Source: Clostridia bacterium
Lineage (GTDB): Bacteria > Bacillota > Clostridia > Christensenellales > Aristaeellaceae
Assembly: GCA_017516765.1 (NCBI GenBank)
Contig: JAFXBE010000039.1
Coordinates: 1-64,000, forward strand
Direction of reading: 5' to 3'
DNA: 64,000 bases
A program made the translations under genes and the position numbers. Position 1 is the stretch's first letter, and each line of letters begins with the position of its first letter. Positions 48,925-52,710 of this stretch are shown in pieces. Under the pieces are notes generated by a model. The model saw only the letters and a list, made by a program, of their open reading frames with translations, made no database searches and was not told the DNA's origin.

Positions 48925-48965
48925 CAAATCACAAAAGGGGATGCGGAACCGATCCGCATCCCCTT
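48925..48965 (-). terminator. Terminator of the cohesin-like operon
   Basis: A 13-bp stem (AAGGGGATGCGGA at 48935-48947 with 48953-48965) is followed on the minus strand by TTGTGATTTG. Confidence 0.75.
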
Positions 48966-48978
48966 CGTTTATGTGTGG

Positions 48979-50574
48979 TTAATCCATCAGAGACTTCAGC
49001 TCTTCCACATGCTGCTTATACGCTTCGGTTGCATAGGGAAAGCTGTCCAGTCCGCGTGCATCTTCACGATACAGGGCGAGACCGTTGAAGTACAGGAGCA
49101 CCTTCGTATCGCCGCCCAGCTGCTCGTCAATGCTGATCGCCTCACCGAGGGTGTAGCCGGTCAGCTGGCTTTCTTCCAGCGTGGTAACAGAAGCCAGATC
49201 CTCAAAGAAGGTGAAGAAATCCCTCTTCATTACTACCCGTTTGCTTGCTTCGTAGGTCACCGTCACCTTACCATCGGCTACATTCACGGTAAGCGTACCG
49301 ATTACGTGCTTGTTGGCTGCAATAAGGTCAATGGTCTGCTCGCCGTCAACGGACAGATCCACAGGCGTGAACATGTACCATTCATCGGTGAGATCGCCTT
49401 CATCGCGGAAACGGATGCCAGCGGTGGTGACTGTTCTATTCTTCCACTTGGCAAAAGGGATCACCTTGCTGTCAACCGTTGCATTGCAGACAGAGCAATA
49501 CTTTTCCTTCAAGCCATCGATGCCATCGGTTGCTTCCTTTACGGTCACCCAGTCGCCAGGCTTGTGACCCAGAGCGGCGATTTCTTCGGTCTTGGTAACG
49601 TCGCCGCACACGGTGCAGGTGTAGGTCTTTACGCCCTTTTCGGTGCAGGTGGCTTTCGTAGTTTCCTTACCGCCGTCGTCCTTGTGACCCAGAGCGGCGA
49701 TTTCTTCGGTCTTGGTAACGTCGCCGCACACGGTGCAGGTGTAGGTCTTTACGCCCTTTTCGGTGCAGGTGGGAGCCTTGGTTTCCTTACCGCCGTCGTC
49801 CTTATGACCGGAAGCGGCGATTTCTTCGGTCTTGAGCACCGTCTGGCACACGGTGCAGGTATGGGTCTTTACGCCCTTTTCGGTGCAGGTAGCTGCTTTG
49901 GTTTCCTTGCCGCCGTCGGTCTTGTGACCGGTTGCGGGCAGCACCTGCTTTTCAAGCTCTTTGCCGCACACAGAGCATACACCGGTGGTGTATCCATCTT
50001 CAGTGCAGGTGGGGTTTACCGTTTCGCCATTGGCTGTGGTATGACCCTTGGCAGCGATGGCTTCTGTCTTGGTTTCACCGCACTGGGTGCAGGTGAAGGT
50101 CTTCACACCGGCGGTCTCGCAGGTAGCAGCGGTGGTTTCGGTGCCGTTGTCCCAGGTGTGAGTGCAGGTGGGGGCGGGGATGGTTACTGTAGTACCGCCG
50201 GAGACGCTTACGCCCGTAGCCGAAACACTAATTGTGTAGTCCCCTGCTGGTGCACTATTACTTACTTTGTAAGTTACAGTTCCAACAACACCTGTTGGCA
50301 AGGGACTAATAAAGTCAGAAGACATTACCGAAAAGCCTGCGCCATCCCGTTGTGGCGGTGTAGCCATTACGCCGCCCATAGTAACTACCGCTTTCTGAAA
50401 AATCAAAACGCTGTCATTACTTGCATTTACATAAATATCAGCAGAAGCACTGTTACTGGATGTGATCTTTACATTAACTGTAACAGTATCGCCAGGCGCA
50501 TACTCCTTAGCGTATACAACGGACACAACGCTCAAAAGAACCAAACAGAGACAAAACGCAACTATCTTTTTCAT
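48979..50574 (-). CDS. Secreted cohesin-like protein with Cys-pair repeats
   Basis: 531 aa from ATG 50574 (AAAGGAA upstream). A signal peptide (KKIVAFCLCLVLLSVVSVVYA) is followed by a cohesin-type beta sandwich at about 24-130 (YAPGDTVTVNVKI, VVGTVTYKVSNSAPAGDYTI). About six Cys-pair repeats of 40 residues follow (TCTEKGVKTYTCTVCGD, KTEEIAALGHKDDGGKE). The remaining 150 residues are a further domain of unknown type. No anchor is visible at the C-terminus. Cohesins bind dockerins, and the gene just upstream (20 bases away) encodes a dockerin, so the two products are likely partners. The DNA is AT-richer than its surroundings in the cohesin part, but the Cys repeats are GC-rich. Confidence 0.72.
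   Translation of the reverse strand: MKKIVAFCLCLVLLSVVSVVYAKEYAPGDTVTVNVKITSSNSASADIYVNASNDSVLIFQKAVVTMGGVMATPPQRDGAGFSVMSSDFISPLPTGVVGTVTYKVSNSAPAGDYTISVSATGVSVSGGTTVTIPAPTCTHTWDNGTETTAATCETAGVKTFTCTQCGETKTEAIAAKGHTTANGETVNPTCTEDGYTTGVCSVCGKELEKQVLPATGHKTDGGKETKAATCTEKGVKTHTCTVCQTVLKTEEIAASGHKDDGGKETKAPTCTEKGVKTYTCTVCGDVTKTEEIAALGHKDDGGKETTKATCTEKGVKTYTCTVCGDVTKTEEIAALGHKPGDWVTVKEATDGIDGLKEKYCSVCNATVDSKVIPFAKWKNRTVTTAGIRFRDEGDLTDEWYMFTPVDLSVDGEQTIDLIAANKHVIGTLTVNVADGKVTVTYEASKRVVMKRDFFTFFEDLASVTTLEESQLTGYTLGEAISIDEQLGGDTKVLLYFNGLALYREDARGLDSFPYATEAYKQHVEELKSLMD
49558..49920 (-). repeat. 120-bp tandem repeats in the cohesin-like gene
   Basis: Period 120 bp (40 codons). The 90 bases at 49561-49650 and 49681-49770 are identical, and a third unit around 49801-49890 is close. 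They encode the TEKGVKTYTCTVCGDVTKTE repeat. Confidence 0.85.
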
Positions 50575-50594
50575 AAGTCCATTCCTTTCTTTAT

Positions 50595-52361
50595 CTATAC
50601 AAGTTCTACATCAAATCCAGAAATGTGCTGCATAATTCTCAGCGCATCTGCTGTATTGACTTCACCATCACCGTTGCAATCAGCATTTCTCATATTAGGA
50701 TATACATCGAATCCTGAAACGTATTGCATGATCATCAGTGCATCTGCCGTATTTGCTGCGCCATCCTCGTTTGCATCACCCGGTACACGTGCACCAATAT
50801 CACCGGCGGGCGGTTCCTCTTCTCCACCGGGCGGTTCGGGGGTAGGTACTGTTTCCAACGTTCCCGGATTGCCAACGGTAAAGTCGCTGGAAACAAAATT
50901 GTATTCATTGCCGAACTTGAAGGTCTTGCCTTCGTAGGTAAAGCCGAACTGTGCATTCAACTCATAGCGGTACCAGCCGGTAGATCCATTCAACTTTCTG
51001 ACCAGCACGATGCTGTCCATCGTTTTGCCATCAATTTTGGTATTCTCCAAATTGATGGTGCGCGTACTGACGGCGGGCTTCAATGTGCACGGCGAGCCGG
51101 TAGCGCTTACGTCTTTTTCCGTTTCTCGGTCAATGACGCGGGCAGTCAGGCTCAGGAAGGGAACATCCGCTTTTACATCGCCCTTAAACAGGAAACCATA
51201 AGACGATGTTACCTTGATATCGCCTTGGGGATAAGTGGTGGAATGGGACGGCTTGGTGACATGGGATACAAAATCCATGTTCTGAACATCGGCACCCTTA
51301 TCATAGAAATTAAGGAAACTGCCATCTGCCAGTTCTGCCCAGACATTACCGTAGGAATTGGTTACAAAACTCTTTACCTTAAAGCTTTCTCCAGCCGGAT
51401 AAGTTTTTGCCTTGTCAGAGTCGGAATAAGGAGCGATACGGGCTGTTTGATCCTTCTTGTTTTTGAAGTTGGCAGACAGCGAGAACAGATCGCTGTATTC
51501 CCATACCGTTACATCGCCTTCCCAAACAAAGCCACCGCTTGCAATTTTGTACCATGTGTTGCCATGCTTATTTTTCACTGCACCGACAATCTTCACAGTA
51601 TTGCCTTTGGGAACAGAATCGCTTTTATCATTGCTGTTTTCATAGGGCTTTTCTTTAACGTAGCACTGGTCTTCGCCAGATGCAGGCTTTATACTCACAC
51701 CAATCCGTTTTTTGTTATCGACGGTGGTATAGTCCTGAGTAAACGTCGGTGCATCTTGCCAATAAATATACTTAATGTATTTTTTTCCATAACTCGCTAT
51801 CTTTGCCCAGGTGTGATAGACAATTCGCGTGTTACCTTTGCCATTATAGTTGCCCTCATAAAAGTAACCGCCATTTCCATCACTGCCCAATGCCAAAAAC
51901 AGCATGGTATGACCGGTTCCGCCATCACTTGCATCAGGTGTTGATACTGCATCTATTCTCAGTACGGCACCGGGTTTGGTTTGAGCGAAAAACTTCTTCA
52001 AATTCGCTTCGGTACACAATCTTTCATCTGCAGAAAGATTACGCAGCAGATTATTCTTTGTGGCTGAATTCCGGTAATAGAAATCTGTTCCCCAGATTTT
52101 TTTATAGATTGCCGCCGTATATCCCCAACAGCACTGATGTTTTCCGCTTCCTACAGCAGAATTATTACATGTCAGATTTGTATTTGCGGTTTTTACCGCA
52201 GTGGAGTGCGAAACACAATCTGCAGTTATTGTTGCGTTACCAACCTTGAAAGATGTCTCCGCCTTCGCCTTCGGCGCATACCCCACAACGCCGAACATCA
52301 GCACCGCAACCAGCAGAGTCGCCAGACACTGGGACAGCAAACAATGCTTCCTTCCACACAT
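50595..52361 (-). CDS. Secreted dockerin protein with amidase-like and SH3-like domains
   Basis: 588 aa. The start is ATG 52361, 8 bases after GAGGAG; the ATG two codons earlier is too close, and longer starts lie in the promoter. A signal peptide (about 1-35) precedes an amidase/CHAP-like domain: Cys77/Cys78 in GKHQCCWGYTAAIY, His151 in GGTGHTMLFLAL and Glu169/Asn171 in FYEGNYNG. Two SH3-like repeats follow (PKGNTVKIVGAVKNKHGNTW, PAGESFKVKSFVTNSYGNVW), then a beta-rich region, a Pro/Glu linker and a type I-like dockerin (about 528-588). The dockerin has two calcium loops, DANEDGAANTADALMIMQY and DCNGDGEVNTADALRIMQH. It probably docks onto a cohesin, such as the next gene's product. Confidence 0.85.
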   Translation of the reverse strand: MCGRKHCLLSQCLATLLVAVLMFGVVGYAPKAKAETSFKVGNATITADCVSHSTAVKTANTNLTCNNSAVGSGKHQCCWGYTAAIYKKIWGTDFYYRNSATKNNLLRNLSADERLCTEANLKKFFAQTKPGAVLRIDAVSTPDASDGGTGHTMLFLALGSDGNGGYFYEGNYNGKGNTRIVYHTWAKIASYGKKYIKYIYWQDAPTFTQDYTTVDNKKRIGVSIKPASGEDQCYVKEKPYENSNDKSDSVPKGNTVKIVGAVKNKHGNTWYKIASGGFVWEGDVTVWEYSDLFSLSANFKNKKDQTARIAPYSDSDKAKTYPAGESFKVKSFVTNSYGNVWAELADGSFLNFYDKGADVQNMDFVSHVTKPSHSTTYPQGDIKVTSSYGFLFKGDVKADVPFLSLTARVIDRETEKDVSATGSPCTLKPAVSTRTINLENTKIDGKTMDSIVLVRKLNGSTGWYRYELNAQFGFTYEGKTFKFGNEYNFVSSDFTVGNPGTLETVPTPEPPGGEEEPPAGDIGARVPGDANEDGAANTADALMIMQYVSGFDVYPNMRNADCNGDGEVNTADALRIMQHISGFDVELV

Positions 52362-52384
52362 ATTCATCTCTCCTCTCAGCAACA

Positions 52385-52442
52385 AATACAACATATGTTG
52401 TATTTCTGGCAACACTATACAACATACGTTGTATTCTGTCAA
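52385..52442 (-). promoter_or_regulatory. Promoter of the dockerin operon with two palindromic operators
   Basis: Minus strand TTGACA (52437-52442), 17 bases, TATAGT (52414-52419). Operator 1, ATACAACATACGTTGTAT (52417-52434), fills the spacer and touches the -10. Operator 2, AATACAACATATGTTGTATT (52385-52404), is a perfect 20-bp palindrome. The centres are 31 bp apart, three helical turns. Confidence 0.85.
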
Positions 52443-52470: not shown

Positions 52471-52710
52471 TTGCATTACCCGAGACTGCGGGATTTACGC
52501 GAGGATCACGACATGACACAGGACGAACTGGTTGCCAAGCTTGGGATGCACAAAACCACCTACACCAATTACGAACAGGGGAAAAGAGAGATCCCCTTTC
52601 AGCTGGTCATCCGGCTGGCAAAGCTCTACAATGTAAGTCTGGATTATATTGCCGGGCTGTCCTCCACGCCAAAGCCGCTGTTTTTTTCAAACATCTACAG
52701 CAAAAAATGA
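52471..52710 (+). CDS. XRE-family repressor divergent from the dockerin operon
   Basis: 79 aa from TTG 52471, 10 bases after AAGGAG; the nearby ATG is in another frame. It is one helix-turn-helix domain: LRDLREDHDMTQDELVAKLG, then HKTTYTNYEQGKREIPFQLV and LAKLYNVSLDYIAGLS, the SinR/Xre type. It is divergent from the dockerin operon, with the ACAACATATGTTGT-type operators between them, so it is probably the regulator of both. The signal that relieves repression is unknown. Confidence 0.85.
   Translation: MHYPRLRDLREDHDMTQDELVAKLGMHKTTYTNYEQGKREIPFQLVIRLAKLYNVSLDYIAGLSSTPKPLFFSNIYSKK

What the first reader, a model, noticed from the sequence alone, without database searches (positions are those of the whole stretch)
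48979..52442. Regulated cohesin/dockerin pair with an amidase-like payload
Two adjacent secreted genes encode a cohesin-like domain (followed by Cys-pair repeats) and a protein ending in a two-loop dockerin after an amidase/CHAP-like and two SH3-like domains. A divergent XRE repressor and two palindromic operators control the promoter. Cohesin/dockerin systems are best known from plant-fibre cellulosomes; here the payload looks like a cell-wall or peptide hydrolase, and the scaffold is a Cys-repeat protein with no visible anchor. The part around 50.2-52.6 kb is AT-richer than the rest of the window, which suggests transfer. This could be a small surface or weapon system rather than a cellulosome.
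Basis: partly seen in the sequence, partly recalled or inferred. Interest (0 to 1): 0.72.

Follow-up and report, generated by a model that had tools for sequence, protein, structure and literature searches.

The report
Switchable cohesin–dockerin wall-enzyme module
A gut-type Clostridia genome carries a single, tightly regulated plug-and-socket pair of secreted proteins, the kind of connector used by fibre-digesting bacteria, but here it seems to hold a swappable enzyme that probably cuts bacterial cell walls rather than plant fibre.

Summary
Gene A (48979-50574) has an N-terminal cohesin. It scores below the Pfam cut-off by itself, but its orthologues pass and its profile matches solved cohesins. 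Gene B (50595-52358) ends in a canonical two-loop dockerin. These are the only cohesin and dockerin found in the 3.0-Mb genome. A divergent 79-aa XRE regulator and two palindromic operators control the promoter; one operator fills the -35/-10 spacer, and no other comparable copy exists in the genome.

The same XRE/operator/B/A module recurs in three genomes of another genus. XRE is 85% identical, A and the B chassis 50-66%, but B's enzyme is replaced: M23 endopeptidase twice, an unrelated-looking thiol-hydrolase-like domain once. Across 13 loci, cohesin distance tracks the dockerin of the neighbouring gene (partial Mantel r = 0.62, 0 of 10,000 permutations reach it), not the rest of its own gene. 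Across the family, 62 dockerin proteins carry no GH, CBM, PL or CE domain.

Best reading: an inducible, mobile, non-cellulosomal cohesin-dockerin pair tethering an exchangeable peptidoglycan-directed hydrolase. The pairing is well supported. Peptidoglycan as target is likely only by analogy with M23. Weapon versus self-remodelling is undecided, and the window's enzyme domain matches no known family.

The parts
52471..52710 (+). XRE-family regulator (79 aa, HTH only, TTG start with upstream AAGGAG), divergent from the operon
   Evidence: Pfam HTH_3 3e-15; 85% identical in L003, L056, L057
52417..52434 (.). Operator 2, palindrome ATACAACATACGTTGTAT, fills the spacer between -35 and -10
   Evidence: conserved position in three other loci
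52386..52403 (.). Operator 1, perfect palindrome ATACAACATATGTTGTAT just downstream of the -10
52414..52442 (-). Promoter TTGACA-17 nt-TATAGT (11 of 12)
   Evidence: TTGACA-17-TATANN at the same place in all four loci
50595..52358 (-). Gene B, secreted dockerin-tagged payload protein (587 aa)
51741..52256 (-). N-terminal enzyme-like domain ('warhead') with invariant Cys and His (C43/H116 in alignment A5); no Pfam or PDB match; CHAP/papain-like only by motif
50871..51734 (-). Chassis of gene B: two SH3-like repeats (DUF5776-like) and an Ig-like part, 63-66% identical in three other modules
50598..50789 (-). Type I dockerin, two near-identical 12-residue Ca-binding loops
   Evidence: Dockerin_1 6e-11; the only dockerin in the genome
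48979..50574 (-). Gene A, secreted cohesin scaffold protein (531 aa)
50173..50505 (-). Cohesin domain
49450..50166 (-). Six tandem ~40-aa Cys/His repeats (C-x~10-C-x2-C ... GH)
   Evidence: sequence
48982..49443 (-). Conserved ~155-aa C-terminal domain, common in the family also without a cohesin; candidate envelope-association domain
48934..48966 (-). Intrinsic-terminator-like hairpin closing the B-A operon
   Evidence: the scan total itself is near shuffle expectation

Best explanation
The locus is a self-contained, inducible, horizontally moving two-protein cohesin-dockerin assembly. XRE binds the two palindromes, one inside the -35/-10 spacer, and keeps the B-A operon off. When repression is lifted, both proteins are secreted by their signal peptides. 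The Ca-loaded dockerin of B plugs into the cohesin of A. A stays with the cell envelope or forms a small surface matrix through its Cys repeats and C-terminal domain. B's interchangeable N-terminal hydrolase is thereby held at the surface, where it most likely cuts peptidoglycan bound by the SH3-like repeats. Shown here: gene content, promoter/operator architecture, conserved linkage, cohesin-dockerin co-variation, enzyme exchange. Inferred: repression by XRE, physical docking, surface retention, peptidoglycan as substrate, and whose wall is cut.
For: Single cohesin and single dockerin in the genome, in genes 20 bp apart. Cohesin identity through orthologues and solved structures. The same module in L003, L056, L057. 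Locus level: 10 of 11 cohesin-bearing gene A homologues have a dockerin gene next door against 0 of 8 without a cohesin, p = 1e-4; genome level 20/20 against 24/280, p = 2e-19. Cohesin distances follow the adjacent gene's dockerin after removing gene A background: partial r = 0.62, 0 of 10,000 permutations. Peptidase_M23 at the enzyme position in L056 and L057, E 7e-20 and 5e-22, with HxxxD and HxH motifs. Operators unique in the genome and conserved with the TTGACA-17-TATA promoter in four loci. No GH, CBM, PL or CE domain in 62 dockerin proteins of the family.
Against: The window's own enzyme domain matches no Pfam, PHROGs or PDB family, and its CHAP resemblance is weak. No sortase, SLH or known wall-binding anchor was found on gene A. 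No complex could be modelled: both AlphaFold models rest on two sequences, with mean pLDDT 52 and 35. No expression or binding data exist.
Confidence: 0.6

Rival explanations
1. Antibacterial weapon: the hydrolase is displayed or released by the cohesin scaffold to lyse competitors, with the enzyme and connector diversifying under competition.
For: Enzyme exchange on a conserved chassis, conserved regulator against divergent payload, patchy and mobile distribution; M23 is the lysostaphin/LytM type (Pfam name; general knowledge).
Against: No immunity gene in the cassette; no release device; no data on non-self targets.
Confidence: 0.27
2. Regulated self-remodelling: a wall hydrolase tethered to the producer's own envelope for division, autolysis, biofilm or spore-related wall turnover.
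For: Secreted wall-hydrolase-like enzyme with SH3-like domains, tethering and tight repression, no immunity gene needed.
Against: Absent from 15 of the 16 other genomes of the genus, hence dispensable; enzyme exchange is unusual for a housekeeping autolysin.
Confidence: 0.3
3. Nutritional or host-protein peptidase: the thiol-hydrolase-like domains (window, L003, L072, L098, L113; C39 in L022) degrade diet or host protein, like a peptidase branch of a cellulosome.
For: C39_2 and transglutaminase-like payloads in the same-genus system L022; R. flavefaciens cellulosomes hold dockerin-tagged peptidases and transglutaminases (PMC2930009, PMC3573020).
Against: M23 domains in two sister modules act on peptidoglycan as a rule; SH3-like chassis.
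Confidence: 0.2
4. Structural surface matrix only, with the enzyme domain inactive.
For: Most dockerin proteins of the family are LRR, Ig-like or InlB-repeat proteins.
Against: Invariant Cys and His across the enzyme family; intact M23 motifs in L056 and L057.
Confidence: 0.1

Closest known systems
Cellulosome (C. thermocellum, Ruminococcus flavefaciens) type I cohesin-dockerin
   Same: Cohesin and dockerin folds, Ca loops, adaptor cohesin-dockerin proteins in related loci (L022, L059, L061, L063, L064)
   Different: No GH, CBM, PL or CE payloads among 62 scanned, one cohesin only, no CBM, dedicated XRE control
R. flavefaciens FD-1 non-CAZyme dockerin proteins (group 4 dockerins, transglutaminase/LRR operons, NlpC/P60-like RflaF_05439; PMC2930009, PMC3573020)
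   Same: Dockerin-tagged peptidase-like, transglutaminase-like and LRR proteins, suggested surface role
   Different: There they sit inside a large cellulosome; here a stand-alone two-gene cassette with its own regulator and exchangeable enzyme
Mucinolysome of Limousia (PMC12997984)
   Same: Cellulosome-like cohesin-dockerin assembly in gut bacteria with another substrate
   Different: Mucin-directed multi-enzyme complex with CAZymes; here one payload and no CAZyme
Clostridium perfringens cohesin-bearing GH84 protein (PDB 2jh2, 2ozn, 2w1n)
   Same: Non-cellulosomal cohesin; 2jh2 has the highest target TM-score (0.54) among the listed matches of the gene A model
   Different: Glycosidase-based, no linked XRE module
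M23 (LytM/lysostaphin-type) and CHAP wall hydrolases with SH3-type domains
   Same: Enzyme and SH3-like layout in L056 and L057
   Different: Here fused to a dockerin and paired with a cohesin scaffold

Membership tests
Type I cohesin | Cohesin profile/fold | tested here: met
   Window domain 18.4 bits, below the cut-off alone; orthologues above; profile against PDB cohesins 1.4e-7; Foldseek prob 1.0 to cohesins from a low-confidence model
Type I dockerin | Two 12-residue Ca-binding loops with helices | tested here: met
   Dockerin_1 6e-11; loops DANEDGAANTAD and DCNGDGEVNTAD
Cellulosome | Several dockerin-tagged carbohydrate-active enzymes | tested here: not met
   One dockerin in the genome; no GH, CBM, PL or CE in 62 family dockerin proteins
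Cellulosome | Scaffoldin with cellulose-binding module or several cohesins | tested here: not met
   One cohesin, no CBM in gene A
Cognate cohesin-dockerin pair | Measured high-affinity Ca-dependent binding | not testable with these tools
   Indirect only: co-variation r = 0.62 and adjacency
CHAP/NlpC-type wall amidase (window enzyme) | Match to CHAP, NLPC_P60 or Amidase families or structures | tested here: inconclusive
   No Pfam or PDB match; hhalign to CHAP 23%, His/Glu/Asn motif aligned
M23 endopeptidase (sister modules L056, L057) | Profile match with HxxxD and HxH motifs | tested here: met
   E 7e-20 and 5e-22; motifs HLATD and HLH
Polymorphic toxin / contact weapon | Linked immunity gene | tested here: not met
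   No third gene in the operon; terminator-like hairpin follows gene A

The most novel reading that the evidence does not exclude
A polymorphic, mobile bacteriolytic system that uses a cohesin-dockerin snap-on joint, rather than fusion, to mount exchangeable peptidoglycan-cutting enzymes on the cell surface, induced by release of a dedicated XRE repressor, in which the connector specificity itself is exchanged together with its partner.
Probability: 0.25. Interest if true: 0.82.

Novelty: new variant of a known kind. Interest (0 to 1): 0.63.

Why it matters
Cohesin-dockerin joints are known almost only as the assembly device of polysaccharide-degrading machines. Here a whole bacterial family uses them with no carbohydrate-enzyme payload found, and one minimal version is a regulated mobile cassette with a swappable wall hydrolase. 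If confirmed, this would extend the cellulosome principle to bacterial antagonism or wall remodelling. It would also provide a natural set of apparently exchangeable connector pairs (13 co-varying pairs here) useful for designer assemblies.

Tried and rejected
Cellulosome: rejected, no CAZyme payloads. Anti-phage defence: PADLOC hits only the generic HTH. Phage origin: PHROGs hits only the HTH. AlphaFold of gene B: two-sequence alignment, mean pLDDT 35, unusable. AlphaFold of gene A: pLDDT 52, only the cohesin region informative. Identifying the enzyme domain by profile against PDB and Pfam: no hit; CHAP profile comparison weak. C-terminal domain of gene A against PDB: no credible hit. Empty-site test: in relatives the esterase and oxidoreductase genes that flank the cassette in the window lie on different contigs, so no clean empty site was shown. 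Modelling the complex: not possible with single-chain prediction restricted to window and L003 sequences; not attempted. Literature for dockerin plus peptidoglycan hydrolase: nothing matching apart from PMC3573020.

Full report
OBSERVATION. Gene A (48979-50574, minus strand, 531 aa) and gene B (50595-52358, minus strand, 587 aa from the ATG at 52358) lie 20 bp apart and both start with signal-peptide-like N-termini. Gene B ends in a clear type I dockerin (Pfam 6e-11) with two canonical Ca-binding loops. Gene A begins with a domain that hits Pfam Cohesin only at E 0.0026, below the curated cut-off. Three lines make it a cohesin nevertheless: orthologous genes pass the cut-off (L003 4e-8 and L022 3e-7; L059 1e-5); a profile of 17 relatives finds PDB cohesins first (5n5p 1.4e-7, 10uv 2e-7, 6kg8); and Foldseek of the low-confidence AlphaFold model returns cohesins at probability 1.0 with target TM-scores near 0.5. 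The cohesin is followed by six Cys/His repeats and a ~155-aa C-terminal domain.

UNIQUENESS. In the 3.0-Mb, 95.5% complete genome the window's dockerin is the only one at E <= 0.001 and the window's cohesin the only cohesin candidate. A lone pair, adjacent, is not what random occurrence of two common domains would give.

REGULATION. The divergent 79-aa XRE protein faces two palindromes, ATACAACATATGTTGTAT (52386-52403) and ATACAACATACGTTGTAT (52417-52434). The second lies wholly in the 17-nt spacer of TTGACA-17-TATAGT (52442-52414), give or take one base at its edge. No other site with 0-1 mismatch exists in the genome, and the remaining 2-3-mismatch sites are about as frequent as those of the control pattern. 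In L003, L056 and L057 the same TTGACA-operator-TATA arrangement and the second operator are conserved. A terminator-like hairpin follows gene A (48966-48934).

THE MODULE ELSEWHERE. L003 (Clostridiales isolate SIG368), L056 and L057 carry XRE, B and A in the same order. They belong to another genus of the same family, whereas 15 of the 16 other genomes of the window's genus have no cohesin match and no dockerin. XRE is 85% identical, gene A 50-62%, the B chassis 57-66%, but the N-terminal enzyme differs: the window has a domain of unknown family with invariant Cys and His, L003 another thiol-hydrolase-like domain, L056 and L057 an M23 peptidase with intact HxxxD/HxH motifs. Flanking genes are not shared, and gene B with the front of gene A is the most AT-rich part of the window. 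Together this indicates a mobile cassette with an exchangeable enzyme. More distant members place NlpC/CHAP-like (L072, L075) or C39-like (L098, L113) domains with related chassis; these calls rest on inspection of motifs only.

PAIRING TEST. Among homologues of gene A fetched only by similarity to gene A, 10 of 11 with a cohesin have a dockerin gene next door; the exception, L067, is cut by a contig end. None of the 8 homologues lacking a cohesin has one (p = 1.2e-4). Across 300 family genomes all 20 with a strong cohesin have a dockerin, against 24 of 280 others (p = 2e-19); these counts treat genomes as independent, which related genomes are not. In 13 loci, cohesin distances correlate with dockerin distances of the neighbouring gene (r = 0.59) but hardly with the C-terminal domain of their own gene (r = 0.11). 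The partial correlation given that domain is 0.62, with 0 of 10,000 permutations reaching it, and it is robust to dropping loci. For example, L003, L057 and L061 have mutually close cohesins and mutually close dockerins, while the nearest C-terminal domain of each lies in another locus. This is what cognate, co-exchanged binding partners would show. It does not prove binding.

WIDER SYSTEM. Larger assemblies exist in the same family. L022 (same genus) has dockerin-tagged transglutaminase-like, C39 and Ig-like proteins, a cohesin-dockerin adaptor and a gene A homologue. G238, G160, G259 and G206 have 12-19 dockerin matches each. In 62 scanned dockerin proteins the recognisable domains are BspA-type LRR, Big_2, InlB-type repeats, transglutaminase, C39, M23, FMN_bind, one kinase/ADP-ribosylglycohydrolase and one NAGPA. 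There was no glycoside hydrolase, polysaccharide lyase, carbohydrate esterase or CBM above threshold. This is a non-cellulosomal cohesin-dockerin system.

MECHANISM. Most likely, XRE represses the operon; on induction both proteins are secreted, B docks on A, and the enzyme is held at the surface where it cuts peptidoglycan. The substrate is inferred from the M23 sister modules and the SH3-like repeats. The C-terminal domain of gene A, present in many family genomes also without a cohesin, is the best candidate for envelope attachment, but it has no known relative. Whether the target wall is self or foreign is open: the exchange pattern favours antagonism, the missing immunity gene favours self-remodelling or a target that the producer lacks.

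COMPARISON. R. flavefaciens has dockerin-tagged peptidases, transglutaminases, LRR proteins and an NlpC/P60-like module within a huge cellulosome, and its authors suggested surface roles (PMC2930009, PMC3573020). Mucinolysomes show that cohesin-dockerin assemblies can change substrate (PMC12997984). No paper found describes a stand-alone, XRE-controlled cohesin-dockerin cassette with exchangeable wall hydrolases (the library lacks many subscription papers). Hence a new variant of a known kind.

LIMITS. Genomes are mostly draft assemblies; the two AlphaFold jobs rested on two sequences each; the enzyme domain of the window is unassigned; nothing is measured.

Noticed in passing
L022 1-12872: Same-genus cluster with several dockerin proteins (transglutaminase-like, C39, Ig-like), a 201-aa cohesin-dockerin adaptor and a gene A homologue: a two-tier assembly without carbohydrate enzymes.
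   Followed up: partly
L058 189-12720: Eight consecutive dockerin genes next to one cohesin scaffold gene; most payloads have no known domain.
   Followed up: partly
L100 2872-5625: Dockerin fused to a Pfam protein kinase and an ADP-ribosylglycohydrolase domain, beside a protein with two cohesin-like domains.
   Followed up: no
window 48982-49443: C-terminal ~155-aa domain of gene A is widespread in the family, also without cohesin or dockerin, and has no Pfam or PDB match; possible new envelope-association domain.
   Followed up: partly
L123-L145: Relatives of the window's enzyme domain, about 40% identical or less and lacking any dockerin in the proteins read, are common in one other genus (g16).
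   Followed up: partly
L091 3-10373: A 3456-aa dockerin protein with a NAGPA (phosphodiester glycosidase) domain, the only sugar-related payload domain seen.
   Followed up: no
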